Notes under the pieces: model-generated | The model's input: the letters and a program-made list of their open reading frames with translations, nothing else | The model's database searches: none | Told to the model about the DNA's origin: nothing | NCBI GenBank assembly: GCA_944321295.1 | Contig: CALUKU010000021.1 | Location: 1 to 54,833, forward strand | Length of the DNA stretch: 54,833 nt | Direction of reading: 5' to 3' | From: an uncultured Prevotella sp. | GTDB taxonomy: Bacteria > Bacteroidota > Bacteroidia > Bacteroidales > Bacteroidaceae | Shown: one piece after another, positions 1,717 through 51,441 of the stretch | Layout of the letters: the number at the start of each line of letters is the position of its first letter | How positions within the stretch are numbered: position 1 is the first letter of the stretch | Made by a program: the position numbers and the translations under genes

Positions 1717-1802
1717 GCAAAAGGCGGTCTTTTGGCTTGCCGAAGCTTACCTTTTACCTCGTAAAAGCTTATCTTTTGCAAGGCGAAAGGTAACCTTTTG
1801 CA
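1717..1802. repeat. Dispersed palindrome module, copy 1
   Basis: Four short palindrome-like units of the form AAAAGgynrcCTTTT, spaced about 22 bases apart, e.g. GCAAAAGGCGGTCTTTTG and GAAAGGTAACCTTTTGC. It lies in the 460-base gap between the divergent sdaA and the gene at 2011. Apart from this module and the two promoters I see nothing in that gap. Confidence 0.75.
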
Positions 1803-1922
1803 ATGGTAGGCTGCGGCGGTCTGGCAGATATGCCTTATCATGCGTTCGGCTGCCGTTCGGGGCATGGGTGGCCGCGAGCTTACATTTTCAGGTGAAGGCA
1901 TGGCTTTTCAGATAAAAAACAC

Positions 1923-1930
1923 TATCTTTG
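1923..1930 (+). promoter_or_regulatory. -7 element, TATCTTTG
   Basis: Perfect Bacteroidetes -7 element 80 bases before the ATG at 2011. No clear -33 element is seen. It lies so close to the alternative TTG at 1948 that the start at 2011 is preferred. Confidence 0.6.
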
Positions 1931-2010
1931 TAGACGGCTAATGCGCCTTGCGGCTGAAGCCTGCGGCATGGCACAGGTGTGCCGCCGATGAAAATAAGGA
2001 GCGAAAAAGG

Positions 2011-2595
2011 ATGTGGAAAATAAAACGTATGATGGTGTGGCTCGGCCGGATACACCGCTGCCGAGGGTTCGGGGTGCAGTCGCCTTGGGCTTACCGCCTC
2101 GTGCGCAATGTCATCAACGAGCGCTATCCTTATTACGCTTACGCCCCGCTGGCCGTGGCGCATCCTCATGCCGACGCCGTTACCCGTAAGCTGTGCGAGC
2201 TGTGCCTGCGTCTGGCCAACTATGTGCAGCCGCGGCGCACGGTCTGCGTCGGCGCCCGTGACGCTGCTTTCGAGGCATACGTCAAGGCCGGGTGCAAACG
2301 TACCGATTGGCAAGACATGACGTGCGAACAGGATATGGGTATGGCGGCAGGAGTAGACTTCGCACTGCTCTTTCCGTCGCCTCTGGCTTCTGCCGGGCTT
2401 AAGGCTATGGCCGACGGCGCTGAAGACGGCTCAATGGCAGTGTTAATCGGTATTCACGAGAATAATGATATGAAGTTCCTGTGGCGCGAATGTAGGCGGA
2501 GCGTGAAGGACGTGGTGCTATTCGACTTGTATTATTGCGGTCTTGTATGCTTTGACCGCAAACGTTATAAACAAGAGTATGTAATTAACTTTTAA
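2011..2595 (+). CDS. Methyltransferase-like conserved protein
   Basis: A 194-aa cytoplasmic protein. The N-terminal signature HRCRGFGVQSPWAYRLVRNV and the C-terminal YYCGLVCFDRKRYKQEYVINF-like end resemble a Bacteroidales family usually labelled class I SAM-dependent methyltransferase. The expected glycine-rich SAM loop is weak here (TVCVGARDAA), so catalytic activity is uncertain and I give no gene symbol. I chose ATG 2011 because AAGGAG lies 9 bases before it. The longer frame from a TTG at 1948 has no such site and starts nearly at the promoter. It lies 12 bases before the cobalamin adenosyltransferase gene, so the two are probably co-transcribed. Confidence 0.7.
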   Translation: MWKIKRMMVWLGRIHRCRGFGVQSPWAYRLVRNVINERYPYYAYAPLAVAHPHADAVTRKLCELCLRLANYVQPRRTVCVGARDAAFEAYVKAGCKRTDWQDMTCEQDMGMAAGVDFALLFPSPLASAGLKAMADGAEDGSMAVLIGIHENNDMKFLWRECRRSVKDVVLFDLYYCGLVCFDRKRYKQEYVINF

Positions 2596-2607
2596 CCATA
2601 AACGGCT

Positions 2608-3171
2608 ATGAAAATAACAAAGGTATATACTAAGACCGGCGACGAGGGTACGACCAGTCTTATCGGAGGAGTGAAGGTAAGGAAGACCAACTCGCGTATC
2701 GAGGCTTACGGAACCGTCGACGAGCTGAGCGCCGACCTCGGCCTGCTGGCCTCGTTCATGAAGGACGGTCCAGACAAGAACCTGATTTACCGCATACAGC
2801 GCAACCTGTTCACCGTGTGCTCGTATCTCGCTACGGACAAGGCAAAGACCCCCTTGGCGCCGTCATACACGCTCGACCCCGCCGAAGTGGCCGTGCTCGA
2901 GAAGGAGATTGACACCATAGTGGCCGGTATTCCGCAGCAGACGGCCTTCATCCTGCCGGGAGGCTCGCACGAGGCGGCCATCGCCCACGTCTGCCGCACG
3001 GTGTGCCGCCGCGCCGAGCGCAGGATATTCTTCCTCGGCGAAAGCACCGAGCTTGACCCCGAAGTGCTGCAATACATGAACCGCCTGAGTGACTATTTGT
3101 TTGTCCTGGCGAGGAAATTAAACTTTGTTGACGGTGTTAGAGAAAAAACATGGCAGAAATCTTGCGAATAA
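2608..3171 (+). CDS. Cob(I)alamin adenosyltransferase, PduO type
   Basis: Transfers the adenosyl group of ATP to cob(I)alamin to make adenosylcobalamin, the cofactor of enzymes such as methylmalonyl-CoA mutase. The 187-aa length is typical of the PduO/MMAB family. The ATP-binding N-terminus YTKTGDEGTTSLIGG is at residues 7-21 and the helix RIEAYGTVDELSADLG follows. The second conserved segment HVCRTVCRRAERRIF near residue 132 has the conserved arginines of the active site. The protein is cytoplasmic with no signal peptide. It follows the methyltransferase-like gene by 12 bases. The family is clear; which dependent enzyme it serves cannot be read from this window. Confidence 0.93.
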   Translation: MKITKVYTKTGDEGTTSLIGGVKVRKTNSRIEAYGTVDELSADLGLLASFMKDGPDKNLIYRIQRNLFTVCSYLATDKAKTPLAPSYTLDPAEVAVLEKEIDTIVAGIPQQTAFILPGGSHEAAIAHVCRTVCRRAERRIFFLGESTELDPEVLQYMNRLSDYLFVLARKLNFVDGVREKTWQKSCE

Positions 3172-3191
3172 GAAAAAATATATTACTTTTG
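3162..3191 (+). promoter_or_regulatory. Promoter of the DUF2795 gene
   Basis: TTG (3162-3164), 19-base spacer, TACTTTTG (3184-3191). It overlaps the end of the preceding gene and lies 33 bases before the next ATG, so the small gene can be transcribed on its own. Confidence 0.65.
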
Positions 3192-3224
3192 CGCTCAATT
3201 AAAAACACTTAAAAATTAAAGGTT

Positions 3225-3446
3225 ATGTATTGGACACTTGAATTAGCTTCAAAGCTTGAGGATGCGCCGTGGCCCGCAACGAAAGACGAGCTTATCGACT
3301 ATGCCATCCGCTCGGGCGCGCCCTTGGAAGTGCTTGAGAACCTGCAAGAGATAGAAGACGAAGGCGATGTCTACGAAAGCATCGAGGATATATGGCCTGA
3401 CTATCCCACGAAGGAAGACTTCCTTTTCAACGAGGACGAATATTAA
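3225..3446 (+). CDS. DUF2795 small protein
   Basis: A 73-aa very acidic protein (MYWTLELASKLEDAPWPATK...). The pattern PWPATKDELIDYAIRSGAPLEVLENL matches the DUF2795 family, whose members are small and of unknown function. The acidic C-terminus ends EDFLFNEDEY. It has its own promoter and is followed by an AT-rich inverted repeat. No catalytic motif, signal or membrane segment is seen. Confidence 0.85.
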   Translation: MYWTLELASKLEDAPWPATKDELIDYAIRSGAPLEVLENLQEIEDEGDVYESIEDIWPDYPTKEDFLFNEDEY

Positions 3447-3460
3447 GTTTTGATTAAGAG

Positions 3461-3534
3461 TTAAGGGTTAAGAATTAAGAAAATATGCCCGGCATGTAAG
3501 GCGCACGGCTTATTTTCTTAATTCTTAGCCCTTA
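3461..3534. terminator. AT-rich inverted repeat, probable terminator
   Basis: Arms 3461-3485 and 3511-3534 are inverted copies of a TTAAGGGTTAAGAATTAAG-like sequence, with CTTAATTTTTAATT downstream. It lies between the DUF2795 gene and porP. A shorter hairpin of the same AATTAAGAATTAA type lies at 32993-33019. Confidence 0.55.
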
Positions 3535-3559
3535 ATTTTTAATTCCTTACTCCTATTTA

Positions 3560-3567
3560 TAATTTTG
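3560..3567 (+). promoter_or_regulatory. T9SS operon promoter, -7 element TAATTTTG
   Basis: Consensus Bacteroidetes -7 element 40 bases before the likely porP start. It overlaps a possible TTG start at 3565, so that codon cannot be in the mRNA made from this promoter. Confidence 0.6.
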
Positions 3568-3606
3568 TTTTGTGCAATAAAATCGCACGTCTTGCGTTAT
3601 AATGTC

Positions 3607-4545
3607 GTGCGAAAACGTCTATTCATCATATTAGCAGTGCTGTCGCTCGCCGTCACTAAGGCCGGCGCCCAGTATGACGTGTCGTTCAGCCACTATTGGG
3701 ACCTTGAGCCTTATTACAACCCGGGAGCCGTAGGCAAGCAGCAGAAGCTTAACGTGGCCGCCGTGTATGCGCTGAGCTTCGCCGGCTTCGAGAACAACCC
3801 CAGGTCGATGTACGTGGGCGCCGACATGCCGCTTTACCTGCTGAAGAACTATCACGGCGTGGGCGTGTCGCTGCTAAACGACCAGATAGGCCTGTTCACC
3901 CACCAGCGCATAGCCCTGCAGTACGCCTTCAAGCACCGCCTGTTCGGCGGAATGATAAGCGCCGGCGTGCAGGTGGGGCTGCTCAGCGAGAGCTTCGACG
4001 GCTCCGAGCTTGACATCGAAGACACGAGTGACCCGGCGTTTACCACGTCTGAAGTCAACGGAAGCGCCTTCGACGTGGGCTTCGGCCTGTATTACACCCG
4101 CGGTCCGTGGTACGTCGGAGTGTCGGCCCAACACCTTACGTCGCCCCTCGTCGAACTGGGCGAAACCAACGAGTTGCAGATAGATCCGACGTTTTATTTG
4201 ACCGGCGGATACAATATTAAACTAAGAAATCCGTTTCTTACTATACATCCGTCAGTGCTCGTCAGGACGGACGGACTGGCCTGGCGGGCCGACGTTTCGG
4301 GCCGGCTCGTATATACGAACGACAAGAAAATGCTCTACGGCGGCGTGTCATACAGCCCTACCAATTCGGTTACGGTGCTCGTGGGCGGCAATTTCCACGG
4401 CATACACATCGGCTACAGCTACGAGGTGTACACGTCGGCCATCAGCATAGGCAACGGCAGCCACGAACTGATAATAGGCTACCAGACGGACATCAACCTG
4501 TTCAAGAAAGGACGTAACAAGCATAAAAGCGTTAGAATACTATAA
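3607..4545 (+). CDS. porP: PorP/SprF family T9SS outer-membrane protein
   Basis: Predicted outer-membrane beta-barrel of the type IX secretion system, partner of the GldK/PorK-GldN/PorN ring. The mature part begins QYDVSFSHYWDLEPYYNPGA, the usual PorP/SprF opening after the signal peptide, and continues as alternating amphipathic strands. The signal peptide is RKRLFIILAVLSLAVTKAGA. No ATG lies in frame. TTG 3565 overlaps the promoter, so I chose GTG 3607, which places the signal peptide at the N-terminus (TTG 3592 is possible). The protein is about 312 aa, normal for the family. gldK follows after 8 bases, giving the standard porP-gldKLMN order. Confidence 0.9.
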   Translation: MRKRLFIILAVLSLAVTKAGAQYDVSFSHYWDLEPYYNPGAVGKQQKLNVAAVYALSFAGFENNPRSMYVGADMPLYLLKNYHGVGVSLLNDQIGLFTHQRIALQYAFKHRLFGGMISAGVQVGLLSESFDGSELDIEDTSDPAFTTSEVNGSAFDVGFGLYYTRGPWYVGVSAQHLTSPLVELGETNELQIDPTFYLTGGYNIKLRNPFLTIHPSVLVRTDGLAWRADVSGRLVYTNDKKMLYGGVSYSPTNSVTVLVGGNFHGIHIGYSYEVYTSAISIGNGSHELIIGYQTDINLFKKGRNKHKSVRIL

Positions 4546-4553
4546 GGTAAGAT

Positions 4554-6002
4554 ATGAAGAGAATAAGTAAAATAGTGGTGCTCGGCCTCCTGGCCGCAAT
4601 CACGCTGACGGGCTGCTTCGGCGGACGCATGTCTTCGTCGGGCCGCGGCGGCGAGGTGGTCGGCGTGAGCGGCAAGCGCTTTACCGAGCCGACGCCTTAC
4701 GGAATGACCCTCATCAAGCGCGGCTACCTTAAGATGGGACTTGAGAAGGACGACAGCCTTTGGGGCAGGCAGACGCCTACGAAGGAAATCTCGGTTGACG
4801 GCTTCTGGATGGACGAAACCGAGGTCACCAACTCAGAGTACAAGCAGTTCGTCTATTGGGTGCGCGACTCAATCCTGCGCACGCGCCTGGCCGACCCCGC
4901 TTACGGCGGCGACGAAACCTACATGATAACCGAAGACAAGAACGGCGACCCCGTGACGCCGCATCTCAACTGGAAAAAAGCGCTGCCCCGCAAGCCCAAC
5001 GAGGATGAGCAGCGCGCCATCGAGAGCCTCTACGTCACCAATCCCGTAACGGGTGAGAAAATGCTCGACGCCAGCCAGATGAACTATCGTTACGAGGTTT
5101 ACGACTATACGGCTGCCGCGTTGCGCCGCAACCGCCTCGACCCGTCGCAGCGCAACCTCAACACCGACGTCCCGGTTGACCCCGACGCCGTGGTGATGAT
5201 ATCCAAGGACACGGCTTACATCGACGACGAGGGCCGCATCGTGAGGCAGACCATCGACCGCCCGCTCAGCGGCCCGTGGGACTTCCTCAACACTTACATC
5301 GTCAACATCTATCCCGACACTACTTGTTGGGTTAACGACTTCGTAAATTCCGACAACGAAACATACATGCGCCTTTACTTCAGCAGTCCTACGTACAACG
5401 ACTATCCCGTAGTGGGCGTCACCTGGGAACAGGCCAATGCCTTCTGCGCCTGGCGCACGGACTACCTTCTGAAGGGCCTCGGCGGCGAGGCGCGTTACAT
5501 CCAGCGCTACCGTCTGCCCACCGAGGCTGAATGGGAATACGCCGCCCGCGGCAAGGAGGGCACGGAGTTCCCGTGGGAAGAGGTGGACGTGAAGACCGAG
5601 GACGGCTGCTTCTACGCCAACTTCAAGCCTGACCGCGGCAACTACACCGAGGACGGCAACCTTATAACGAGCCGCGTGGGCCTGTTCTCGTCAAACTCCA
5701 ACGGACTTTACGACATGGCCGGCAACGTGGCCGAATGGACAAGCACGACCTACACCGAAGGCGGTATCGACGCCATGAACGACCTCAACCCCGAGTTGAA
5801 GTATAATGCCGCCAAGGAAGACCCGTACAGCCTGAAGAAGAAGAGCGTGCGCGGCGGATCATGGAAAGACCCCGAGTCTTACATCCGTTCGGCATGGCGC
5901 ACATGGGAGTATCAGAACCAGCCGCGCTGCTACATTGGTTTCCGTTGCGTGAGAAGCCTTGCATCTACTACAAGCACAAAACAAAAAGGGAGGAAGAAAT
6001 AA
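4554..6002 (+). CDS. gldK: T9SS ring lipoprotein GldK/PorK
   Basis: Periplasmic outer-membrane lipoprotein which, with GldN, forms the large ring of the type IX secretion system. The 482-aa protein starts with a lipoprotein signal ending LTGC (lipid-modified Cys21). The rest is a formylglycine-generating-enzyme/sulfatase-modifying fold, seen in GYLKMGLE, the segment WMDETEVTNSEYKQFVYW, RLPTEAEWEYAARG, GLYDMAGNVAEW and the final VRGGSWKD...RCYIGFRCVR. In GldK this fold is structural. It is 8 bases after porP and 2 bases before gldL, clearly one operon. Confidence 0.95.
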   Translation: MKRISKIVVLGLLAAITLTGCFGGRMSSSGRGGEVVGVSGKRFTEPTPYGMTLIKRGYLKMGLEKDDSLWGRQTPTKEISVDGFWMDETEVTNSEYKQFVYWVRDSILRTRLADPAYGGDETYMITEDKNGDPVTPHLNWKKALPRKPNEDEQRAIESLYVTNPVTGEKMLDASQMNYRYEVYDYTAAALRRNRLDPSQRNLNTDVPVDPDAVVMISKDTAYIDDEGRIVRQTIDRPLSGPWDFLNTYIVNIYPDTTCWVNDFVNSDNETYMRLYFSSPTYNDYPVVGVTWEQANAFCAWRTDYLLKGLGGEARYIQRYRLPTEAEWEYAARGKEGTEFPWEEVDVKTEDGCFYANFKPDRGNYTEDGNLITSRVGLFSSNSNGLYDMAGNVAEWTSTTYTEGGIDAMNDLNPELKYNAAKEDPYSLKKKSVRGGSWKDPESYIRSAWRTWEYQNQPRCYIGFRCVRSLASTTSTKQKGRKK

Positions 6003-6004
6003 TA

Positions 6005-6889
6005 ATGACCGAGTACAGCAAATATAACATCATCTACCGCCTCCAGAAATGGCTGGACAGCGTTCCCGGACAGACGTTCATGAACTACGCTTACAGCTGG
6101 GGTGCGTCAATCGTGATTTTGGGTACGCTTTTCAAGCTGACCCACCTGCCCGGAGCCAACTTCATGCTTTACCTCGGCATGGGCACCGAGGTCGTGATAT
6201 TCTTCATTTCTGCGTTCGACCGTCCGTTCGACAAGACAGCCATCGGCAAGGATCTGCCGACGCACGTTTATAATGAAGAGCTTGAGCAGCAGGCCGACGG
6301 CGAGGCTTATGACGGTGAAGGCGCGCCTGTGGCGTCGCAACCCGTATCAGGCGGCGTTGCGGTACAGCCCGGCATGGTGGCTTATGTCGGCCCCGTAGGC
6401 GCTCAGCCCGTGGCCGGACAGTCGGTGGAAGGCGGTGCCGAGGCAGCCACGGTAAGTCCTGACGCTCCGCAGGGCGTGGCCTTAGGACAGGGCGCACAGC
6501 CGGTTGTCGCCGGTCAGCCCGTGCCAGGATGGGTGTCGGCACAGCAGCAGGTGTCGCCTGAAATGGAAGAAGCCACCAGCAATTACGTTGACGAGTTGAA
6601 GAAGCTTACCGAAACACTGGCTAAGGTTTCCGAGCAGAGCGCACGTCTTACGCGTGACTCCGAGGAGATGGAAAACCTCAACCGCACGCTCACTGGTATA
6701 TGCAAGGTGTACGAGATGCAGCTTAAGGGCGCCAGTTCGCAAATCGGAACTATTGACGAAATCAACGAGCAGTCGCGTAAGATGGCGTCGCAGATTGAGC
6801 AGCTTAACAAGATTTACGCACGCATGATTGAGGCCATGACCGTAAATATGCGTGCCGCCGCGCCCAACGGCAACAACGCAGAAGTGTAA
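6005..6889 (+). CDS. gldL: T9SS motor protein GldL/PorL
   Basis: Inner-membrane part of the proton-driven GldLM motor that powers T9SS. The 294-aa protein has two N-terminal transmembrane helices (about residues 27-42 and 48-70) in the segment YSWGASIVILGTLFKL...MLYLGMGTEVVIFFISAF. The C-terminal half is a coiled-coil-like cytoplasmic region (VDELKKLTETLAKVSEQSARL...). Between them, about residues 95-180, lies a low-complexity stretch rich in Ala, Gly, Val, Gln and Pro. The frame is open upstream into gldK, but ATG 6005, two bases after the gldK stop, gives the family N-terminus. gldM follows after 6 bases. Confidence 0.93.
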   Translation: MTEYSKYNIIYRLQKWLDSVPGQTFMNYAYSWGASIVILGTLFKLTHLPGANFMLYLGMGTEVVIFFISAFDRPFDKTAIGKDLPTHVYNEELEQQADGEAYDGEGAPVASQPVSGGVAVQPGMVAYVGPVGAQPVAGQSVEGGAEAATVSPDAPQGVALGQGAQPVVAGQPVPGWVSAQQQVSPEMEEATSNYVDELKKLTETLAKVSEQSARLTRDSEEMENLNRTLTGICKVYEMQLKGASSQIGTIDEINEQSRKMASQIEQLNKIYARMIEAMTVNMRAAAPNGNNAEV

Positions 6890-6895
6890 ATTATA

Positions 6896-8446
6896 ATGGC
6901 AATAAAGAAAAGACCGGTATCTCCCCGCCAGAAGATGATAAACTTGATGTATGTCGTCTTGATGGCAATGCTCGCGCTCAACGTTTCTACGGAAGTGCTC
7001 GAGGGCTTCACCCTCGTGGAGGAGAGCCTGCAGCGCACCACTAAGAACTCGTCGTCAGAGAACGACGTGCTCTACGGTGACTTCGAGGCGCAGATGAAGG
7101 CGAACCCTCAGAAGGTTAAGGCGTGGTTTGACAAGGCCACCGCCGTGAAGCGCATGAGCGACTCGCTATTCAACTTTGCGCAGGAGCTTAAGGTGGCTAT
7201 CGTGAAAGAGGCCGACGGGGATGACGGTGACGTGAACAACATAGAGCGCAAGGACGACCTTGAGGCGGCCAACCAGGTAATGCTCGCTCCCGGCTCGGGA
7301 CAGGGCAAGAAGCTGTTCGACGCCATCAACTCGTTCCGTGAGCGCATACTGACGATGGTCACCGACGAGCACCAGAAGGCCATAATAGCCAGCAACCTCA
7401 CCACGGAGTTGCCCAAGAACGCAAGGACTATGGGTAAGAACTGGCAGGAATACATGTTTGAGGACATGCCCGTGGCTGCCGCCGTGACGCTGCTTTCAAA
7501 GCTGCAGAGCGACGTTCGCTATGCAGAGGGCGAGGTGTTGCACACCCTTGTGGCCAATATCGACATGAAGGACATACGCGTCAACAAGCTCAGCGCTTTC
7601 GTCATACCCAACGCGCAGACAATTGTGCGCGGCGATAAGTTCTCCGCCCAGATAGTGATGGCGGCCGTCGACACTACGCAGACGCCGCAGATTTACATCG
7701 GCGGACGGCAGATGAACTTGCGCAACAATACATACGAGATAGTGACGAGCCGCACGGGCGACTTCAGCCTGACTGGTTATATAACGATGAGAAACGGCAG
7801 CGGCGACGTCATCCGTCGTGATTTCACCCAAAAATACACCGTGGTAGACCCGAGCGCGACGGTTTCGGCCGACCTGATGAACGTGCTTTACGCCGGTTAC
7901 AACAACCCGATAAGTATCAGTATTCCGGGCGTTCCGCTCACCAAGGTGTCGGCAACGATGAGCGGCGGAACGCTGCAGCCCGTTGCTCCGGGCCGCTACA
8001 TAGCCCGTCCGTCGGCAGTAGGCAAGGACGTAACCATCAGCGTTTTGTCAACACAGACAGGCTCGGCGCGCCAGGTGGGGCAGTTCACGTTCAAGGTGCG
8101 CAAGCTGCCTGACCCGACGCCTTACATCCAGATAGGCGACAACCGCTTCCGTTCGGGCGGCCTTGCAAAGGCTTCGCTGATGTCTGCTCCCGGCATAAAG
8201 GCCGCCATTGACGACGGTCTGCTTGACATACCGTTCAACGTGCTCAGCTTCGAGGCCGTGTTCTACGACAACATGGGCAATGCCGTGCCGATGGTGTCTG
8301 ACGGCGCTTCGTTCACGCAGCGCCAGCGCGAAACGTTCCGCAGGCTGTCGCGCAACAAGCGTTTCTACATCACCCGTATCACGGCCGTTGGTCCTGACGG
8401 CATAAAGAGGACGCTGCCTGCGTCGATGGAGGTTATCGTCAAGTAG
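6896..8446 (+). CDS. gldM: T9SS motor protein GldM/PorM
   Basis: Inner-membrane anchored periplasmic shaft of the GldLM motor. The 516-aa protein begins with a short cytoplasmic tail, then one transmembrane helix, MINLMYVVLMAMLALNVSTE, which carries the family hallmark NLMYVVLMAMLALN. A helical segment and beta-sandwich domains follow (e.g. FVIPNAQTIVRGDKFSAQIV and ISIPGVPLTKVSATMSGG). The length matches GldM/PorM. It is transcribed with gldL (6-base gap). gldN follows after 112 bases with no terminator between. Confidence 0.95.
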   Translation: MAIKKRPVSPRQKMINLMYVVLMAMLALNVSTEVLEGFTLVEESLQRTTKNSSSENDVLYGDFEAQMKANPQKVKAWFDKATAVKRMSDSLFNFAQELKVAIVKEADGDDGDVNNIERKDDLEAANQVMLAPGSGQGKKLFDAINSFRERILTMVTDEHQKAIIASNLTTELPKNARTMGKNWQEYMFEDMPVAAAVTLLSKLQSDVRYAEGEVLHTLVANIDMKDIRVNKLSAFVIPNAQTIVRGDKFSAQIVMAAVDTTQTPQIYIGGRQMNLRNNTYEIVTSRTGDFSLTGYITMRNGSGDVIRRDFTQKYTVVDPSATVSADLMNVLYAGYNNPISISIPGVPLTKVSATMSGGTLQPVAPGRYIARPSAVGKDVTISVLSTQTGSARQVGQFTFKVRKLPDPTPYIQIGDNRFRSGGLAKASLMSAPGIKAAIDDGLLDIPFNVLSFEAVFYDNMGNAVPMVSDGASFTQRQRETFRRLSRNKRFYITRITAVGPDGIKRTLPASMEVIVK

Positions 8447-8558
8447 TCGCAGGGCAGGGTGTGGGCCGGTAAGAGGCTGTGTCGAGGCGATTATGCGGCA
8501 TGCTTCCGTCTGCGCCCCGGCACTTTGAAATAAAAGTAAAAAACGAATATATAAGGAT

Positions 8559-9653
8559 ATGAGTAAATTCATGTTATCGCATAACACGTCATGCCGCCGT
8601 AACGCGGGCGCCTCTACGATGGTGCGCTCGGTTGTGATGGCGTTGCTATTGCTCGCGTTTGCCGTCGAGGCGGCCGACGCCCAGCCGGCGGCCCGTCGCC
8701 GCCAGCAGCAGGCCCGCCGCCAACAGGCGGGGCAAAACCTGACGACGCGCGCGCAGATATCGTTCCCCGTGACGGCCAAGATGTCTGAGGACGTGGTGTG
8801 GCGCAGGGACATTTACCGTGAAATCATTCTTGAGGAAGACGCCAACGCGCCGTTGTATTACCCTGTAGAGCCGGTAGGTTCGCAGATGAACTTGTTCACT
8901 TACCTGTTCAAGCTCATGATGCGCGGTGCCATCAAGGCCTATGAATACCGACTTGACGGCAACGAGGTGTTCACCGACTCGGCCGAAATAAAGCGCATGG
9001 CCTTCCTCGACAACTATCACATCTATTACGAGCGCAACAACCGCGGCGTGCGTATCGACGACAGCGACATACCATCTTCGGAGGTGAAGTCGTATTACGT
9101 GAAGGAGAGCGCCTATTATGACCAGGCTTCGGCCACGTTCCACGTAAAGCCGATAGCCCTCTGCCCGATATTATGGCGCACTGATGACTTCGGCGACGGA
9201 GAGCAGAAGTATCCGCTGTTTTGGGTGAAGTATGACGACGTGGCTCCGTATCTGACTAAGCAGGTCGTGATGACGAGCAACCTCAACAACGCCGCCACGA
9301 TGAGCATGGACGACTATTTTACGCGCAACCTGTATAAGGGCAAGATATACAAGACGGCAAACATGCTGGGACGCACCCTGGCGCAGTATTGCCCTACCGA
9401 CTCCGCCTTGGTTAAGGAGCAGAAGCGCATTGAGGACGAGCTGGCCGCCTTCGAGAAGAACATCTGGGGCGACCAGGTCCGCAAGGACTCGCTCGACAGC
9501 ATAGCCAAGGCCGACGTCAAGGACAAGAAGGGCAAGAAGGCGAAACGCAACCGCCGTGCCTCTACGTCGGTTAAGAAGCGCCGTTCGTCGAGCAAGTCGT
9601 CATCGTCAGGCTCGTCGGCCGCAAGGGTGACGGTGCGCAGGCAAAGGCATTAA
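8559..9653 (+). CDS. gldN: T9SS ring protein GldN/PorN
   Basis: Periplasmic partner of GldK in the T9SS ring. The 364-aa protein has a slightly long N-terminus with the signal MVRSVVMALLLLAFAVEAADAQ. The conserved body is VVWRRDIYREIILEEDANAPLYYPVEP, then NLFTYLFKLMMRGAIKAYEY and ALCPILWRTDDFGDG, typical of GldN. The last 45 residues are a Lys/Arg/Ser-rich tail (KKAKRNRRAST..., then an SSSKSSSSGSS run) that is not part of the conserved fold and looks disordered. ATG 8559 has AAGGA upstream. The operon ends here: a hairpin follows at 9657-9726. Confidence 0.93.
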   Translation: MSKFMLSHNTSCRRNAGASTMVRSVVMALLLLAFAVEAADAQPAARRRQQQARRQQAGQNLTTRAQISFPVTAKMSEDVVWRRDIYREIILEEDANAPLYYPVEPVGSQMNLFTYLFKLMMRGAIKAYEYRLDGNEVFTDSAEIKRMAFLDNYHIYYERNNRGVRIDDSDIPSSEVKSYYVKESAYYDQASATFHVKPIALCPILWRTDDFGDGEQKYPLFWVKYDDVAPYLTKQVVMTSNLNNAATMSMDDYFTRNLYKGKIYKTANMLGRTLAQYCPTDSALVKEQKRIEDELAAFEKNIWGDQVRKDSLDSIAKADVKDKKGKKAKRNRRASTSVKKRRSSSKSSSSGSSAARVTVRRQRH

Positions 9654-9656
9654 AAG

Positions 9657-9726
9657 CGGAAAGGTGAAAGGATGAAAAACGCGGCAGCGTTTCCCGTCCT
9701 TTTGCCTTTCCGTTCTTTCTTTTTTA
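9657..9726 (+). terminator. T9SS operon terminator
   Basis: CGGAAAGG (9657-9664) pairs with CCTTTCCG (9705-9712), with further pairing inside (AAAGGA/TCCTTT, AAACGC/GCGTTT). A T-rich run follows to 9726, directly after the gldN stop. Confidence 0.65.
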
Positions 9727-9763
9727 AATAATCAATTATCCACTTTTTTAAAATCACATCATT

Positions 9764-10378
9764 ATGAGAAAATTGTTTACTCTCGCCGTTGTCATTGCGG
9801 CAACCCTCGTAGCCATTCCTGCCCAGGCGCAGTTTAAGTTCGGTTTGAAGGGCGGTCTGAACATCACCGACATGTCGTTCAGCAGCGACGTGTTCGAGTC
9901 GTCAAACCGTGCGGGATTCTTCATCGGTCCTACAGTTAAGTTCACGCTCCCCATCGTAGGCCTCGGCATTGACGCTTCGGCCCTTTACGACCAGCGTGAG
10001 GCTAAGCTCAAAGGCTCAGACAAGAAGTTGAAGCAGCAGGCCATCAACATCCCCATCAACCTGCGCTATGACATCGGCCTTGGCAGTCTTGCGGCCGTTT
10101 ACCTTGCAGCCGGTCCGCAGTTCGGCTTCAACGTGGGCGACAAGCATCAAAATCTTGTTAAGGACGCTCTTGACTGGCGTCTTAACACTTCTAACTTCAG
10201 CGTTAACGTAGGCGCTGGTGTTATGCTGCTCAGCCACCTCCAGGTGGGTGCCAACTACAACATCGTGTGCGGCAAGACGGGTGAGGCTACAGTGCTCAAT
10301 ACGGTCGGCAACTTAGCCAAGGGCGTTGTGCGTGGACGCACGAACTCATGGCAGGTTTCGCTGGCGTATTATTTCTAA
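9764..10378 (+). CDS. Outer-membrane beta-barrel protein (PorT-like family)
   Basis: A 204-aa exported protein with signal MRKLFTLAVVIAATLVAIPAQAQ. The mature part begins FKFGLKGGLNITDM and continues as alternating beta strands (AGFFIGPTVKFTLP, VGLGIDASALYDQ, AVYLAAGPQFGFN), ending in an aromatic residue (SWQVSLAYYF), as expected for an outer-membrane barrel. This is the broad Bacteroidetes porin/PorT-like family. It may not be the true T9SS PorT, despite its position after gldN. It is separated from gldN by a terminator and ends with its own strong terminator. Confidence 0.85.
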   Translation: MRKLFTLAVVIAATLVAIPAQAQFKFGLKGGLNITDMSFSSDVFESSNRAGFFIGPTVKFTLPIVGLGIDASALYDQREAKLKGSDKKLKQQAINIPINLRYDIGLGSLAAVYLAAGPQFGFNVGDKHQNLVKDALDWRLNTSNFSVNVGAGVMLLSHLQVGANYNIVCGKTGEATVLNTVGNLAKGVVRGRTNSWQVSLAYYF

Positions 10379-10412
10379 TTACGCGCGGCGGACAAGTTTT
10401 GTTTCATTCTAC

Positions 10413-10460
10413 AAGCGGAGGCCCTTATGCCGTTTAAAGGCGGGCCTCCGCTTTTTTATT
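10413..10460 (+). terminator. Terminator of the beta-barrel gene
   Basis: Perfect 12-bp stem AAGCGGAGGCCC (10413-10424) with GGGCCTCCGCTT (10442-10453), followed by a T-run. Confidence 0.9.
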
Positions 10461-10469
10461 TAATGTGAC

Positions 10470-10711
10470 GTGAGTTCTGTATAACTGCTATGGTTTTACT
10501 AACAACGAAAACACCCTCGTTCAAGTGAAGCTCTTACAAATCAGTCATCCCGGACTTGATCCGTCGTCATCCTGAACTTGATTTAGGACCAGAATGTAAA
10601 CACCATCTTGTGGCAACGTTGCGGCATACGACTGGTTCCCGGATCAAGTCCGGGATGACTGATTTGCAACACCCTCGTTTGAACGAGGGTGTTTTCTTAT
10701 ATCGAATTCAC
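10470..10711. repeat. MITE-like element A
   Basis: Terminal inverted repeats GTGAGTTCTGTATAA (10470-10484) and TTATATCGAATTCAC (10697-10711) enclose two further nested inverted repeats: an 18-bp pair (10507-10524 with 10679-10696) and a perfect 27-bp pair (10537-10563 with 10640-10666) containing TCCCGGACTTGATCCG. No coding capacity. It fills the first half of the 463-base gap between two convergent genes. The ends match element B at 20257-20444. Confidence 0.7.
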
Positions 10712-10796
10712 CTTGGAGCTTACCTTTTAGGCTGCAAAAGGTAACCTATTGCACGCTAAAAGGCCGCCTTTCACCATGCGAAAGGCGGCCTTTTGT
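10711..10796. repeat. Dispersed palindrome module, copy 2
   Basis: Four palindromic units forming two hairpins. The second is perfect: AAAAGGCCGCCTTTC (10758-10772), 7-base loop, GAAAGGCGGCCTTTT (10780-10794). It abuts MITE-like element A and lies just beyond the end of the tolC-like gene, so it could also terminate that gene. Confidence 0.8.
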
Positions 10797-10841
10797 AAAT
10801 ATGTTGATTATCAATAGGTTACGAATCCGTGTGAGAATGTG

Positions 10842-12113: not shown

Positions 12114-12122
12114 AAGCAAAAG

Positions 12123-15233: not shown

Positions 15234-15242
15234 TGTTCCGTC

Positions 15243-16271: not shown

Positions 16272-16300
16272 GTCGTTATGGTTTTAATGTTTCTATGCTG

Positions 16301-16308
16301 CAAATTTA
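16301..16308 (-). promoter_or_regulatory. Efflux operon -7 element
   Basis: On the minus strand TAAATTTG, 29 bases before the adaptor ATG. No clear -33 element. Confidence 0.5.
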
Positions 16309-16462
16309 GTGTCATATTATTGCCGTTTTCTCCTTTTTTATTCCTTAAAAATGTCCTAAAAGGGAACAATAAGAGTTTTAGAACATAAGATATTGACGAT
16401 AGGATATACCGTGTTCGTTGTGCTGCTGACGGCCGTCGGCGTGCGGCGTGGTGGCCGGTCGG

Positions 16463-16555
16463 CTTGCCGAAGGCCGCCTTTCGGCTTCTGAAAGGCCACC
16501 TTTTACGGCGTAAAAGGCCGTCTTTTATAACGTGAAAGACGGCCTTTTGTAACAT
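16463..16555. repeat. Dispersed palindrome module, copy 3
   Basis: Four units. The last two form a 14-bp hairpin AAAAGGCCGTCTTT (16512-16525) with AAAGACGGCCTTTT (16535-16548), which differs from copies 2 and 6 by a compensated base pair. It lies in the 474-base gap between the efflux operon and the divergent AraC-family gene. The rest of that gap holds only the two promoters. Confidence 0.8.
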
Positions 16556-16718
16556 GTTGAAATACAGGCTGTTGCGACGCGTCTTGTCGGACGTGCCGTC
16601 GCCGGCCGTCGCGAAAGGGCTTGCTGGCGGGTGGACGTGTAAGTTTCTTTAACTTTAGCGAGGAAAAAACGACTACTTATGATGATTTTCCGACAACGTC
16701 CGTTTCACGGAAAATGTG

Positions 16719-16726
16719 TTACTTTG
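16719..16726 (+). promoter_or_regulatory. Possible -7 element of the AraC-family gene
   Basis: TTACTTTG followed by CACGCAAAA, one mismatch to TAnnTTTG, 19 bases before the ATG at 16746. Confidence 0.4.
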
Positions 16727-16745
16727 CACGCAAAAATATCTGGCT

Positions 16746-17636: not shown

Positions 17637-17637
17637 T

Positions 17638-22638: not shown

Positions 22639-22726
22639 GTGCGAAAGCTTGCCTTTTAGCGTGTGAAAGCTTACCTTTCGCGGCGTAAAAGCTTACCTTT
22701 CGCAGGCCGAAAGGCGGCCTTTTGCA
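22639..22726. repeat. Dispersed palindrome module, copy 4
   Basis: Four units (GCGAAAGCTTGCCTTTTAGC, GAAAGCTTACCTTTCGC, AAAAGCTTACCTTTCGC, GAAAGGCGGCCTTTTGC). It lies in the 309-base gap between the divergent PgpH-like gene and gltX. Besides it and the -7 element, the gap holds only GC-rich sequence. Confidence 0.8.
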
Positions 22727-29806: not shown

Positions 29807-29879
29807 TGGGTGTCTTCAGTTTGCTCTTACTTGTCAAAAACAAAGTCATACTATCCAAAAGGTTTGCGGATGAACCCCA

Positions 29880-29970
29880 ATAGGTAGCCTTCCGCAACGC
29901 AAAAGGTTACCTATTACACGCTAAAAGGCCGCCTTTCACACGCTGAAAGGCGGCCTTTTGTAATGCGTTG
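29880..29970. repeat. Dispersed palindrome module, copy 6
   Basis: Two hairpins. The first is ATAGGTAGCCTT (29880 on) with AAGGTTACCTAT (to 29913), with a G-U pair. The second is perfect: AAAAGGCCGCCTTTC (29923-29937) with GAAAGGCGGCCTTTT (29945-29959). It lies 46 bases beyond the end of the gamma-carbonic anhydrase gene. Confidence 0.8.
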
Positions 29971-30015
29971 GTTGTCAGAGCGTTACGTCGACGGTAAAGA
30001 GCCGCCGCCCGAGGG

Positions 30016-33905: not shown

Positions 33906-33933
33906 TTGCTTGTCCCTTGTGCCTTGTCTGCCG

Positions 33934-34830: not shown

Positions 34831-34838
34831 CATTGTTG

Positions 34839-35823: not shown

Positions 35824-35898
35824 ATGCGCCCGTGGCGCCGGTCATGCCGCCGCATTAACCGTTATAAGAAACTACTCTCGTAACGCATTGATACCCAA

Positions 35899-35970
35899 TG
35901 CGTTGCAAAAGGTCGCCTTTTACGTTGCAAAAGCTTACCTCTTGCGACATAAAAGGCGGCCTTTTGCATT
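35899..35970. repeat. Dispersed palindrome module, copy 7
   Basis: Three clear units: GCAAAAGGTCGCCTTTTAC, GCAAAAGCTTACCTCTTGC and AAAAGGCGGCCTTTTGC. It lies in the 376-base gap between lptB and trigger factor. The gap otherwise holds the lptB terminator and the tig promoter. Confidence 0.75.
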
Positions 35971-42612: not shown

Positions 42613-42983
42613 GTGCCTCGCGCTTTCCTGTCGCAGCGCCGTAGGCCGCCTAAAGTCTTATGCCAAAGCATTTTATGCGTTTCGGCCTGCGTCTGGAACG
42701 TCAAGAACAGACACATTAAGTAGCATATACGCATAAGCCGCGTTGCCATCTTGGCGGCGCGGCTTATGCGTATAATATAATAAGGTATGCAAAAGGCCAC
42801 CTTTCGGTTTGCGAAAGGTGGCCTTTTGCCGTGTAATATGCCGCCTTTTGTAATGTGAAAGGTTACCTTTTGAAACGGGTAAGGATTGTCTTTGTGTGTA
42901 AGGCTGTTGCTTCATGTGGTTTTGTCGCCTGTTAGCCTTGCTGTAGGCAAATGCGAAAAAAAAGAATAAAAGCATTGTTGTAT
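42613..42983. other. Gene-free stretch after the lipoprotein gene
   Basis: Holds a perfect 17-bp inverted repeat, TATACGCATAAGCCGCG (42726-42742) with CGCGGCTTATGCGTATA (42758-42774), without a T-run, and palindrome module copy 8. No convincing gene. Confidence 0.6.
42787..42873. repeat. Dispersed palindrome module, copy 8
   Basis: The first two units form an 18-bp hairpin, GCAAAAGGCCACCTTTCG (42789-42806) with CGAAAGGTGGCCTTTTGC (42812-42829) and a 5-base loop. Its central pair differs from copies 2, 3 and 6 with compensation. Two more units follow (GCCGCCTTTTG and GAAAGGTTACCTTTTG). Confidence 0.8.
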
Positions 42984-43532: not shown

Positions 43533-44582
43533 ATGAAACGTTTTTCTACAAAGTGTGCAGTGTTTTTTATTGCATTGTTGGTGTCGGTTCAGGTGTCGGC
43601 ATACGATTTCCGGGTCGGCGGACTGTGTTATGACATCTTGTCGCAAGACGATTTGACTTGTGCAGTGGTTGCCGGTGACGAGCCTTATTCGGGCAATATT
43701 ATTATTCCGGAACGAGTGACGTATGGCGGCCAGACTATGACTGTTGTTGCAATCGGTGCAAGAGCGTTTTATGAAGACCCGGTGACGAGCGTGGTAATAG
43801 GCAACTCGGTGACCGACATAGGCTATTATGCCTTTCGTCTTTGCTCAAGCCTTGAGCATGTGACATTCGGCAATTCCGTTGCGAGCATAGGCTATAATGC
43901 TTTTGAGGATTGCCCTAACCTGACGGATTTTGTATTCCCCAGCACGCTGCGGTCGATAGGACGCCTGGCTTTTACGGGTTGCACTGGACTTACGAAAGTG
44001 ACCATCCCCGACTCGGTCACGGAGATGGGCTCCGCCGAATTTCATTTTTGTCTAAACCTCAAGGAGGCGGTTGTAGGCAACTCGGTCGAAACAATGGATG
44101 AGACTTTTGGCAGCTGCGACAATTTGGAGCGCGTGGTCATCGGGCGTTCGGTGAATAAAATCATGCCAGCGACGTTTAGATATTGCGAAAGCCTGAGAAC
44201 CATATACCTGCTGAACCCCGTGCCTCCGACTGTGCTTGAACCGAGCCAGTTCACCCAGCAGAATTATGCCAACGCAACGTTGTATGTGCCTGAAGGCTCG
44301 CTGTCAGCCTACCAGGCTGCCGACCCGTGGATGAACTTCTATAGCATAAAGGAGTTTGAGACGACAGACGTGTCGGATGTCGAGGCTGCCGGGTTAAGTG
44401 TTAGTGCTGACGGTGGTAACATCATTGTAGAGAACGCTCATGGCCGCGTATCTGTCTACACCGTATCGGGCGCATTGGTGGGCAGTGCCGATGCCGACGG
44501 CGGCCGCGTAACCATAGCCGTTCCGGGGCGTGGCGTATATGTCGTGAAGGCTGGCGGCAAGGCCGTTAAGGTAAGTTTGTGA
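43533..44582 (+). CDS. BspA-like leucine-rich repeat protein with T9SS sorting domain
   Basis: Predicted cell-surface protein of 349 aa. The signal FSTKCAVFFIALLVSVQVSA is followed by about seven LRR_5/BspA-type repeats (residues 65-235; e.g. AIGARAFYEDPVTSVVIGNS, SIGYNAFEDCPNLTDFVFPS). A BspA-like spacer follows (LYVPEGSLSAYQAADPWMNF). The last 65 residues (NIIVENAHGRVSVYTVSGALV...GRGVYVVKAGGKAVKVSL) match a type A T9SS C-terminal domain, so the operon at 3607-9653 probably exports it. The DNA is visibly more AT-rich than its neighbours, which may indicate transfer. It follows the putative RNA unit and ends in a bidirectional terminator. Confidence 0.9.
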   Translation: MKRFSTKCAVFFIALLVSVQVSAYDFRVGGLCYDILSQDDLTCAVVAGDEPYSGNIIIPERVTYGGQTMTVVAIGARAFYEDPVTSVVIGNSVTDIGYYAFRLCSSLEHVTFGNSVASIGYNAFEDCPNLTDFVFPSTLRSIGRLAFTGCTGLTKVTIPDSVTEMGSAEFHFCLNLKEAVVGNSVETMDETFGSCDNLERVVIGRSVNKIMPATFRYCESLRTIYLLNPVPPTVLEPSQFTQQNYANATLYVPEGSLSAYQAADPWMNFYSIKEFETTDVSDVEAAGLSVSADGGNIIVENAHGRVSVYTVSGALVGSADADGGRVTIAVPGRGVYVVKAGGKAVKVSL

Positions 44583-49175: not shown

Positions 49176-50938
49176 CGATAAGCGACAACTTAAGAAACTT
49201 TTTCGGGGGGCATAGGATTCTGATAATTGCAGTCCTATGCCTTTTTGGACTTGGCATGGTGCAGTCGCGCCAGGCTCCGAAGAAGAAGCGCCGGGCCAAG
49301 ACCGACGAGCGCGTCTATCTGGTTCATGCCGACAGGCTGCGCTTCGACCAGTACAGCGCGAACCCTACTGCGCAGATACTTAACGGCAACGTGGCCTTCC
49401 GCCACAAGGGCGCCAAGCTGTATTGCGACAGCGCTTACTTCTACCAGGCTTCCAACTCGTTCCGTGCCTTCGGGCATGTTAGGATGTACCAAGGCGACAC
49501 TTTGTCGCTCTTCAGTGACTACGCCTATTACGACGGCAACGACCAGATGGCCGAGGCGAGGCGCAACGTGGTGCTGACGCACAGGAAGACCAAGCTATAC
49601 ACCGACAGCCTGAACTACGACCGCCTTTACGGCATAGGCTATTTCTTTGAAGGCGGAAAGATGGTTGACAAGCAGAACACGCTCGTTTCAGACTGGGGCG
49701 AGTATGACACGGAAACGAGGATGGCCGTGTTCAACTACAATGTGAACCTTAAGAATCCAAAGTTCGTGCTTACCACCGACACCCTGCATTATGACACGCG
49801 CACGTCGCTGGCGCACATCGTAGGCCCGTCGGAGATTACGTCGGGCGAGAGCGTGATACACACTTCGCAGGGATATTATGACACAAACAAGGACCTTGCC
49901 CGCCTTTACGGCCGCTCTACGCTGAGCAACAACGGCAAGGAGATGACCGGCGACAGCCTTTTCCACAACGAGAAGACGGGCGTGAGCGAGGGCTTCGGCA
50001 ACGTGGTTTACAACGACACGGTGAACAAGAACCAGATGACGAGCAACTACTTTTGGTACAACGACAGCACGGGCTACGCCTTCGCCACCGACAGCGCCGT
50101 GCTGAAGGAGTATTCGCAGGGCGACACGCTCTTCGTACATTCAGACACGATGAAGGTTTACACCTTTAATATAAACACCGACTCGGTTTACCGCAAGGCT
50201 CATTGTTACCCTAAGGTTAGGGCCTTCCGCACCGACGTGCAGGCCGTGTGCGACTCGCTCGTGTACAACACGAAGGACTCGTGCATGACGATGTATAAGG
50301 ACCCCATCGTGTGGAACGCCGACCGCCAGCTGTTAGGCGAGATGATAGAGGTGTTCATGAAGGACTCCACCGTCGACCGCGCGCACGTCGTCAACCAGGC
50401 CCTTTCAGTAGAGCGGCTGCCCGACAGCACGCACTACAACCAGATAGCCTCGCGCGAGATGTTCGGATTTTTCGACAAGGGAGAGCTTCGCAAGGCCGAG
50501 GCCGTAGGCAACGTGCAGTGCGTCTACTACTTCCAGGACGACAAGGACAGCTCGCTGATAAGCATGACTTACATGGAAACCGACACCATGCGCATGTTCA
50601 TGAAGGACCGCCAGCTGCAGTCTATCTGGACGTGCAAGCACAACAGCGTGATGTATCCCATAACGCAGATACCGCCGTCGAAGAAGGAGCTGCCGTCGTT
50701 CGCGTGGTTCGACTACATCCGTCCGTTGGATAAGTACGACATATTCAACTGGCGCGGCAAGGCCAAGGGCACCGAGCTGCGCAACATCCAGAGGCGTTCG
50801 GCCCCGTTGCAGTTTATCAATGCCGGCGGCGTAGTGTCGGCCGAGGGTGACAAGCTCGTTCCAGTCGCGGCACCCGCTCAGCTGGCCGAGGCGGTGAAAG
50901 CCGACGAGCCGTCGCCTGAAAGCCGTGCCGAGGAATAA
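49172..50938 (+). CDS. OstA/LptA-like LPS transport protein
   Basis: A 588-aa protein with an N-terminal membrane/signal segment (ILIIAVLCLFGLGMVQS) followed by OstA-type beta-jellyroll repeats: VYLVHADRLRFDQ...AQILNGNVAFRHKGAKLYCDSAYFYQ, then AEARRNVVLTHRKTKLYTDSLNYD, and similar units to about residue 400. In the family this fold makes the periplasmic LPS bridge (LptA) or the N-domain of LptD. No LptD barrel is present, so it is LptA-like. The start codon overlaps the surA-like stop (ATGA), so they are translationally coupled. The last 50 residues are Ala/Glu-rich. Confidence 0.88.
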   Translation: MTISDNLRNFFGGHRILIIAVLCLFGLGMVQSRQAPKKKRRAKTDERVYLVHADRLRFDQYSANPTAQILNGNVAFRHKGAKLYCDSAYFYQASNSFRAFGHVRMYQGDTLSLFSDYAYYDGNDQMAEARRNVVLTHRKTKLYTDSLNYDRLYGIGYFFEGGKMVDKQNTLVSDWGEYDTETRMAVFNYNVNLKNPKFVLTTDTLHYDTRTSLAHIVGPSEITSGESVIHTSQGYYDTNKDLARLYGRSTLSNNGKEMTGDSLFHNEKTGVSEGFGNVVYNDTVNKNQMTSNYFWYNDSTGYAFATDSAVLKEYSQGDTLFVHSDTMKVYTFNINTDSVYRKAHCYPKVRAFRTDVQAVCDSLVYNTKDSCMTMYKDPIVWNADRQLLGEMIEVFMKDSTVDRAHVVNQALSVERLPDSTHYNQIASREMFGFFDKGELRKAEAVGNVQCVYYFQDDKDSSLISMTYMETDTMRMFMKDRQLQSIWTCKHNSVMYPITQIPPSKKELPSFAWFDYIRPLDKYDIFNWRGKAKGTELRNIQRRSAPLQFINAGGVVSAEGDKLVPVAAPAQLAEAVKADEPSPESRAEE

Positions 50939-50952
50939 AAGCAGTCAAGCGT

Positions 50953-51246
50953 ATGGGACTTTTCAGCATAAGGAAGCCGCGCGGCTTCCGCCACGAATAC
51001 ATCTATGCCGACGACCGCAAGCAGCGGCTGAAGGCCGTTGAAGAGCGGGCCAAGGCCGAGCTTGGCATGCCCGCCGCCGAGCGGCCTGACGCCGAGCGCA
51101 TACGGGGCATGTTCATCGGCGCCACCAGGCATGCCCGCCGCCGCCGCGAGCGGCGGCTGTCAGGAGGCTTCGTGCTGAGTTACGGCATAATCGTCGTGCT
51201 GCTCGTAATCCTCGTTGCGGTGTGGAAGATGTTGCTCTCCATGTAG
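50953..51246 (+). CDS. Small membrane protein of unknown function
   Basis: A 97-aa protein (MGLFSIRKPRGFRHEYIYADDRKQRLKAVEERAKAELG...) with a highly basic N-terminal two-thirds and one C-terminal transmembrane helix (LSYGIIVVLLVILVAVWKMLL). It is 14 bases after the OstA-like gene, at the end of the envelope-assembly operon. This location next to LPS and outer-membrane protein genes is conserved in my impression of Bacteroidales, but I know no function for it. Confidence 0.85.
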   Translation: MGLFSIRKPRGFRHEYIYADDRKQRLKAVEERAKAELGMPAAERPDAERIRGMFIGATRHARRRRERRLSGGFVLSYGIIVVLLVILVAVWKMLLSM

Positions 51247-51352
51247 CCGCCGGCACCTTGCCTTAGGCTTTTTCCTGTGAAGTTTCAGCGAAGAACGCCT
51301 TTTGTTATTACTCAAATCGTAAATCATTGACAATCAGCAACTAGCCGTTTGC

Positions 51353-51441
51353 TTTGCAAAACGCCGCCTTTCGGCCTGCAATATGCCGCCTTTCATGCGC
51401 TGAAAGATGGCCTTTTGCGGCGTAAAAGGCCGCCTCTTGCC
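51353..51441. repeat. Dispersed palindrome module, copy 9
   Basis: Four units: GCAAAACGCCGCCTTTCGGC, CAATATGCCGCCTTTCATGC, GAAAGATGGCCTTTTGC and AAAAGGCCGCCTCTTGCC. It lies in the 259-base gap before mutL. The open frame that seems to extend mutL upstream starts inside this repeat. Confidence 0.75.

What the first reader, a model, noticed from the sequence alone, without database searches (positions are those of the whole stretch)
1717..51441. Nine dispersed copies of an 88-base, four-palindrome module in intergenic DNA
Modules at 1717, 10711, 16463, 22639, 24641 (degenerate), 29880, 35899, 42787 and 51353 are each built of up to four units of the form (G)AAAAGgynrcCTTTT(C), about 22 bases apart. 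All lie between genes: three between divergent, three between convergent and three between tandem genes. One copy per 6 kb is dense for a chromosome. The consistent total length (mostly 86-93 bases) and fixed plan suggest a unit that is copied or maintained, like REP/BIME elements, or a genome-wide terminator or processing signal.
Basis: seen in the sequence. Interest (0 to 1): 0.8.

Follow-up and report, generated by a model that had tools for sequence, protein, structure and literature searches.

The report
Repeated twin-hairpin modules between Prevotella genes
Some two hundred short DNA modules lie scattered, mostly between genes, in this Prevotella-like bacterium; they are built as hairpin pairs on a strict 22-base ruler, and in a sister species the places and the plan are kept while the letters have changed, which suggests a function that depends on shape.

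Summary
In detail: nine modules of about four 15-bp arms on an exact 22-bp period; such arms are absent from shuffles. A covariance model finds about 94 places in 852 kb of this genome (hand count).

Two corrections. (1) The arms are not four free palindromes: arms 1-2 and 3-4 covary as two tandem hairpins (15-bp stem, 7-nt loop) and arms 2-3 do not. A 28-bp dyad marks one end only in 51 of 85. (2) They are not REPs of a RAYT: the RAYT-like gene here has another repeat beside it, and 11 of 16 bearers have no Y1 transposase match. Terminators are unlikely, not excluded.

Positions are shared with a sister species (Fisher p=6e-5), yet nine orthologous pairs are no more alike than random ones. 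Of 22 genus genomes outside this group, 9 carry palindromic 22-bp arrays with unrelated arms. Best reading: a vertically inherited DNA element selected for shape. Its function is inferred, not shown.

The parts
1719..1799 (.). module 1, four arms; divergent genes; 16-of-28 (sub-threshold) end-motif match at 1691-1718
10714..10794 (+). module 2; arms 3-4 pair 15/15; convergent genes
10796..10823 (+). end motif of module 2 (GTAA..TTGATTATCAA..GTTACG type dyad, 22 of 28)
16468..16548 (+). module 3; arms 3-4 pair 14/15; divergent genes; 16-of-28 (sub-threshold) end-motif match at 16549-16576
22643..22723 (.). module 4, four arms, no strong hairpin (best adjacent pair 11/15); divergent genes
29879..29959 (+). 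module 6; arms 3-4 pair 15/15; convergent genes
29960..29987 (+). end motif of module 6 (24 of 28)
35907..35965 (-). module 7, three good arms; between ABC transporter and trigger factor genes; end motif at 35879-35906 on the - strand (23 of 28)
42791..42871 (.). module 8; arms 1-2 pair 15/15; no end motif above threshold
51358..51438 (.). module 9, four arms (best adjacent pair 11/15); between OstA-like gene and mutL

Best explanation
SHOWN: the module plan is two tandem inverted repeats (H1 = arms 1-2, H2 = arms 3-4), each a 15-bp stem with a 7-nt loop on a 22-bp ruler, often with a 28-bp dyad at one end next to H2; single copies vary and many are imperfect. Modules sit at the same places in a sister species while their letters have turned over. 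INFERRED: selection acts on shape and phasing at the DNA level (cruciforms, single-strand hairpins at replication, or a phased array bound by a protein), to organise or relieve the topology of the chromosome rather than to control one neighbouring gene. The set probably spread in an ancestor as a non-coding element and has been kept since; other Prevotella lineages carry sets with other arms.
For: On 34 of the 52 oriented own copies, 19 of 30 pairs have changes on both sides, covariation 0.256 against 0.160 shuffled (0/500); control pairing 2-3 shows no excess. H2 pairs at 13/15 or better in 28 of 52 and H1 in 10 of 52 (own); 8 and 6 of 21 in G206. Position: 7 gaps with a module in both, 1 own only, 2 G206 only, 23 neither; nine orthologous pairs 0.626 identical, random pairs 0.625. 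DNA level: G-T against A-C mismatches along transcription 36:29 own, 8:4 G206; end motif downstream or upstream 10:9 and 4:4; gene arrangement follows available intergenic DNA. Palindromic arrays with other arms at period 22: 21 in 9 of 22 genus genomes; 0 to 3 at each of ten other periods.
Against: No binding protein, phenotype or transcript evidence. 37 of 81 own and 16 of 43 G206 modules have no adjacent pair of 13/15. The spot of module 35907 is empty in 8 genus genomes that keep the gene pair, one of them (G259) a module bearer, so the element is dispensable at that place. Tandem modules sit nearer the upstream 3' end in 25 of 32 (own) but 11 of 19 (G206), a hint of an RNA role. Even spacing is clear in one species only: gaps under 2 kb 3 of 66 against 10.2 expected (1 of 1000 simulations as low); G206 6 of 51 against 10.0 (54 of 1000). 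Two of 15 orthologous comparisons are clear misses. In 42 short relative loci period 22 did not exceed 21 (5 each at S>=58), and in other genera of the family 21 and 22 tie (9 each). The filter was set after seeing arrays, though applied alike to all periods.
Confidence: 0.45

Rival explanations
1. A non-autonomous mobile element (MITE-like) whose hairpins and end motif are recognition sites of a transposase; hairpins are kept because copies need them to move. (Overlaps with the best reading as to origin.)
For: Ten or more pattern matches in 16 of 276 genus genomes, none in 252; a conserved motif at one end only, 51 of 85; one spot empty in 8 genomes.
Against: No near-identical modules in the sample: pairs average 0.656 identity, maximum 0.831; positions shared with the sister species although letters are saturated; no Y1_Tnp match in 11 of 16 bearers. 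Other transposase families were not searched, and target duplications or empty sites could not be defined at this divergence.
Confidence: 0.25
2. Bidirectional transcription terminators or 3'-end processing hairpins.
For: AAAAGG..CCTTTT arms resemble other intergenic hairpins of this genome (e.g. window 44620 and 54685), which I take for terminators; nearer the upstream 3' end in 25 of 32 tandem cases; module RNA folds at -38.5 against -18.7 kcal/mol for mononucleotide shuffles.
Against: 17 of 65 placed modules lie between divergent genes (12 of 61 with other ORF limits), in proportion to available DNA; 36 of 81 end arm 4 in TTTT but only 3 of 81 have a further T. The scan of 1600-21000, which covers three modules, called two short partial stems inside module 16468 but none of the 15-bp hairpins, and two hairpins with T tails beside module 10714 (10436, 10668); the scan as a whole is at chance (19 found, 21.0 in shuffles). 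Other species' arms (TGGAACNNNGTTCCA; AAATCAATTTGATTT) have no U tract.
Confidence: 0.17
3. REP/REPIN repeats moved by a RAYT.
For: Palindromic, mostly intergenic, high copy; a RAYT-like gene exists; atypical structures are reported near Bacteroidetes RAYTs of subclass 2.6 (PMC6006769, that section read).
Against: The RAYT-like gene has the GTAGGGACATAAT.. repeat behind it, not a module; no Y1_Tnp match in 11 of 16 bearers, including those with 273 and 319 pattern matches (drafts 91-99 percent complete); no GTAG tag.
Confidence: 0.05
4. Arrays of operator sites, one dimeric protein per palindromic arm, two helical turns apart.
For: Arms are partial palindromes themselves (10.13 of 14 own, 8.33 in G206); 22 bp is about two helical turns; arrays of other arms share the ruler.
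Against: Compensation is between arms 1-2 and 3-4, not 2-3, which independent sites would not give.
Confidence: 0.13
5. Passive palindrome correction (template switching) keeps neighbouring arms complementary without function.
For: Short-loop inverted repeats are known substrates (general knowledge, no call).
Against: Arms 2-3 have the same 7-nt spacing and show no covariation.
Confidence: 0.03

Closest known systems
REP / BIME / REPIN elements with RAYT (GTAG- and CGTC-tagged families, PMC3733652; RAYT subclasses, PMC6006769; passages of both read)
   Same: Dispersed palindromic repeats, high copy, patchy set of species; two hairpins side by side recall a REPIN
   Different: No tag tetranucleotide, no Y1 transposase match in most bearers tested, strict 22-bp ruler with about four arms, letters vary between copies, positions outlast letters
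BrickBuilt of Porphyromonas gingivalis (PMC4596501, abstract and passages read)
   Same: Bacteroidales, intergenic, short-period array (23 nt) with distinct ends
   Different: 19 copies in one strain, head-to-tail direct repeats in variable number, leader and tail with terminal inverted repeats shared with insertion sequences; here about four arms with covarying hairpins, about 94 places in 852 kb
Intrinsic terminators / palindromic structured-RNA candidates of Bacteroidetes (PMC8040213, passages read)
   Same: Hairpins readable on both strands with AAAA..TTTT edges
   Different: No preference for gene arrangement, twin hairpins on a ruler, one-sided end motif

Membership tests
REP/REPIN-RAYT | short palindromic repeats in high copy, outside genes | tested here: met
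   intergenic place verified for the window only
REP/REPIN-RAYT | cognate RAYT gene in the genome | tested here: not met
   Y1_Tnp matched in 5 of 16 bearers
REP/REPIN-RAYT | copies flank the RAYT gene | tested here: not met
   own genome only: gene at L003:6265-6792 is followed by another repeat; nearest detected module copies are a two-arm one 1.4 kb upstream and one 4 kb downstream
REP/REPIN-RAYT | tag tetranucleotide (GTAG or CGTC) beside the palindrome | tested here: not met
   27 aligned ends read G/T/A/A at 59/77/100/92 percent
MITE | terminal inverted repeats, target duplication, empty sites | tested here: inconclusive
   motif at one end only; intergenic DNA too diverged to align empty sites
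BrickBuilt | head-to-tail 23-nt direct repeats with leader and tail | tested here: not met
   period 22 and inverted pairing of arms
intrinsic terminator | GC stem followed by a U tract, placed at 3' ends | tested here: not met
   (U tract and placement); transcript ends not testable here
CRISPR | near-identical repeats with longer unique spacers | tested here: not met
   7-nt spacers and variable arms
Rfam families | match at gathering score | tested here: not met
   no match in the window

The most novel reading that the evidence does not exclude
A class of chromosome-wide DNA element defined by geometry rather than sequence: about four arms on a 22-bp ruler that pair with one another, renewed with different letters in each Prevotella lineage and held in place, perhaps read by a shape-reading or co-evolving chromosome protein.
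Probability: 0.35. Interest if true: 0.88.

Novelty: new variant of a known kind. Interest (0 to 1): 0.72.

Why it matters
If the reading holds, position and shape are kept in bacterial intergenic DNA while sequence is not.

Tried and rejected
RAYT link: rejected. Terminator: disfavoured. Passive palindrome correction: disfavoured. One-strand RNA: no clear G-T excess. Replication-strand bias of the end motif: 26 to 15 own with 11 weak-skew cases set aside, 13 to 7 in G206 with 1; suggestive only. Regular spacing: first impression softened by the null. A supposed orthologous module with another core (L045) was my error, noted and corrected: it lies on the other side of the gene. In one search the left neighbour of 35907 was an antisense ORF of the ABC gene, so its 'div' label is wrong; the region is the ABC-trigger factor gap. 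Hits in Oscillospiraceae and a proteobacterium are single hairpins.

Copy number: my first count read as copies.

Samples and dropped rows: 18 of the first 20 own stretches lie on contigs where one search listed sites, so their density runs high; three of the second 20 contain listed sites. One search kept 81 of 87 own and 43 of 53 G206 modules (core score 36 or more). One search was given 34 of the 52 oriented references, mostly those with the end motif directly after arm 4. One search used 9 of the 11 placed pairs; L008 and L018 were left out (several candidates or a wide gap). One search's 48 arrays are unfiltered and include two from species of this core (L143, L154); one of its 7 motif-positive arrays is L143. 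One search left out AT-rich arrays, N runs and edges; 21 of its 22 genus genomes had no pattern match, the 22nd (G271) was not in that call. Ten paper searches, judged by title and start of abstract, listed no paper that describes this module; the library is open-access only.
Full report
WHAT IS THERE. The nine modules are present where stated. Arms of 15 bp follow each other at exactly 22 bp in 124 of 128 adjacent cases. Twenty-one arms at score 13 or more occur in the window, none in ten shuffles. A score that ignores the letters and asks for four similar or complementary arms at period P peaks at 22: 87 places at S>=58 in 852,183 bases of the own genome, 0 to 5 at ten other periods; 53 against 0 to 4 in 396,735 bases of sister species G206. 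One Markov shuffle of each set gave 0. Four arms is the commonest size (48 of 75; 65 of 125; 28 of 68 in G206).

WHOSE GENOME. That it is a Prevotella in the broad sense is inferred: a same-genus genome, G259, has the contig length of Prevotella bivia DSM 20514, and the bearers listed are nearly all Prevotella or relatives.

HOW MANY. A one-hairpin pattern with up to 3 mismatches finds 212 sites in 2,578,459 bases, none with the reversed control. A covariance model from 34 oriented copies finds 176 matches at about 94 places (hand count) in 852 kb; most modules match on both strands. Over whole genomes the same model reached the limit of 150 scored candidates in the own genome, G206, G512, G513, G514 and G370, with 149, 143, 139 and 118 matches in G299, G302, G516 and G259; five genus genomes without this core gave 0, 0, 0, 3 and 1. 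Density is uneven: 0 to 2 per 10 kb by stretch, 52, 25 and 8 modules of three or more arms in 397, 400 and 55 kb. Some two hundred copies in the genome is my estimate from these.

ANATOMY. Permuting arms among modules shows that arms 1-2 and 3-4 fit each other better than arms of other modules, and arms 2-3 do not: z 8.2, 8.7 and 0.1 in the own genome (81 modules), 5.4, 6.3 and -1.0 in G206 (43), 11.4, 9.7 and 0.8 in 114 modules of the genome-contig scan. The third set was found by a two-arm pattern and overlaps G206 in at least one locus; in it arms 1-3, 2-4 and 1-4 also rise (z 3.3, 3.3, 5.5), as differing species consensus can produce. Pair counts on 34 copies give 19 of 30 pairs with changes on both sides, no excess for 2-3. 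So the plan is two tandem hairpins. Not every copy is well paired: 37 of 81 own modules have no adjacent pair of 13/15. A dyad of about 28 bp (GTAAyGCgTTGAttATCAAgggcGTTACG type) lies at one end in 51 of 85 modules and at both ends in 0 of 85; the hairpin next to it is the better one in the own genome (28 of 52 against 10 of 52) and slightly so in G206 (8 against 6 of 21).

RELATION TO GENES. The window has three modules each between divergent, convergent and tandem genes. In the sample the shares follow the available intergenic DNA. The end motif takes no side relative to transcription (10:9 and 4:4), G-T mismatches do not clearly exceed A-C (36:29 and 8:4), and 3 of 81 modules have a T after arm 4. 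Beside module 10714 stand two hairpins with T tails, but that scan as a whole is at chance (19 found, 21.0 in shuffles) and covers three modules only. Weak points: 22 of 87 modules fall in naive frames of 80 aa or more, and tandem modules lean to the upstream 3' end in 25 of 32 own cases, 11 of 19 in G206.

EVOLUTION. Of 33 orthologous gaps between own genome and G206, 7 have a module in both, 1 in the own genome only (S 53, cut 54), 2 in G206 only and 23 in neither (p=6.3e-5). A flank-based search placed 11 modules: 9 had a core-matched counterpart and variant-letter arrays lie in the other two gaps. Across five relatives 10 of 15 comparisons reach S>=56 and 13 of 15 S>=52, though one gap without an own module also scored 52; clear misses are 22643 in G512 and 24646 in G206. 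Yet nine orthologous pairs average 0.626 identity, random pairs 0.625. Place and plan have outlasted letters. The spot of 35907 is empty in eight genus genomes that keep the gene pair, among them G259, itself a bearer. At least one pattern match occurs in 24 of 276 genus genomes, ten or more in 16, a single one in 5; 0 of 234 genomes of other genera had any.

OTHER ARMS, SAME RULER. In 42 short relative loci period 22 did not stand out (5 at S>=58, as at 21). In 20-kb samples of 15 genus genomes it did (16 against 4 or fewer, an N run counted at every period); in 16 other genera 21 and 22 tie at 9. With a filter for inverted similarity, 22 genus genomes outside this group (629,068 bases) give 21 arrays in 9 genomes at period 22, 11 of them with exactly four arms, and 0 to 3 at each of ten other periods; other genera give 4 at 22 and 3 at 21. 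Examples: TGGAACNNNGTTCCA and TGTAGTGNCACTACA in G178, AAGAAACGCC/GGCGTTTCTT in G253 and G274, AATTTGGGCGAATTT in G303. A few listed rows look like plain or AT-rich repeats. In G178 the best-fitting arms are not always neighbours (1-4 in L273, 1-3 in L274, read), so the two-hairpin rule is shown only for the own-core group. The end-motif core lies within 110 bp of 7 of 48 unfiltered arrays and of 7 of 294 background gaps.

NOT A RAYT SYSTEM. One Y1_Tnp gene exists; NCBIfam's REP transposase model scores 68.3, cut-off 80. It is followed by an inverted pair of GTAGGGACATAATTCATTATGTCC, of the same kind as window 20306-20424 and 29692-29813 and a better candidate REP. Of 16 bearers 11 have no Y1_Tnp match.

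READING. Shown: twin-hairpin plan, shared places, letter turnover. Inferred: selection on DNA shape, for chromosome topology or structure. A mobile origin and a terminator role remain open at lower odds. The kind (dispersed palindromic repeat) is known; this variant was not seen in ten searches of an open-access library.

Noticed in passing
window 20306-20424, 29692-29813; L003:6827-6936: A second repeat, GTAGGGACATAATTTATTATGTCC in inverted pairs, sits directly behind the genome's only Y1_Tnp (RAYT-like) gene: probably the true REP/BIME of this genome.
   Followed up: partly
window 29624-29876; L014:12565-12819; L010:5585-5837; L011:450-702; L004:17884-18138: A MITE-like element of about 250 bp with ends like GGTTCATCCGCAAATCTGTTGGATGG carries that REP pair and lies at or beside the outer arm of modules in these five copies, 84-93 percent identical to the window copy: a possible repeat-targeting element.
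   Followed up: partly
L212, L222, L224, L229, L230, L235 (JAMPFD01): A MAG labelled Bacillota bacterium NALB_7861_17 carries four-arm modules at these six places, one near a Prevotella-type end motif: perhaps mislabelled or contaminated.
   Followed up: no
L002, L022, L023, L027, L028, L032, L033, L036, L037: Own-genome stretches with few or no modules, on contigs C1, C2, C4, C6 and C11; some have low G+C (0.38-0.49), others not. Islands and replication-related patterns were not separated.
   Followed up: no
window 33901-33932, 34785-34816, 20444-20475: Another short repeat of CTTGTCTGCTTGT type recurs in gaps here; parts of window 33795-33862 and 34746-34838 match elsewhere in this genome and in G206.
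   Followed up: no
window 25032-28112 (-): A 1027-aa protein with Peptidase C10 and Spi inhibitor domains; a BspA-type LRR protein lies at 43533-44579.
   Followed up: no
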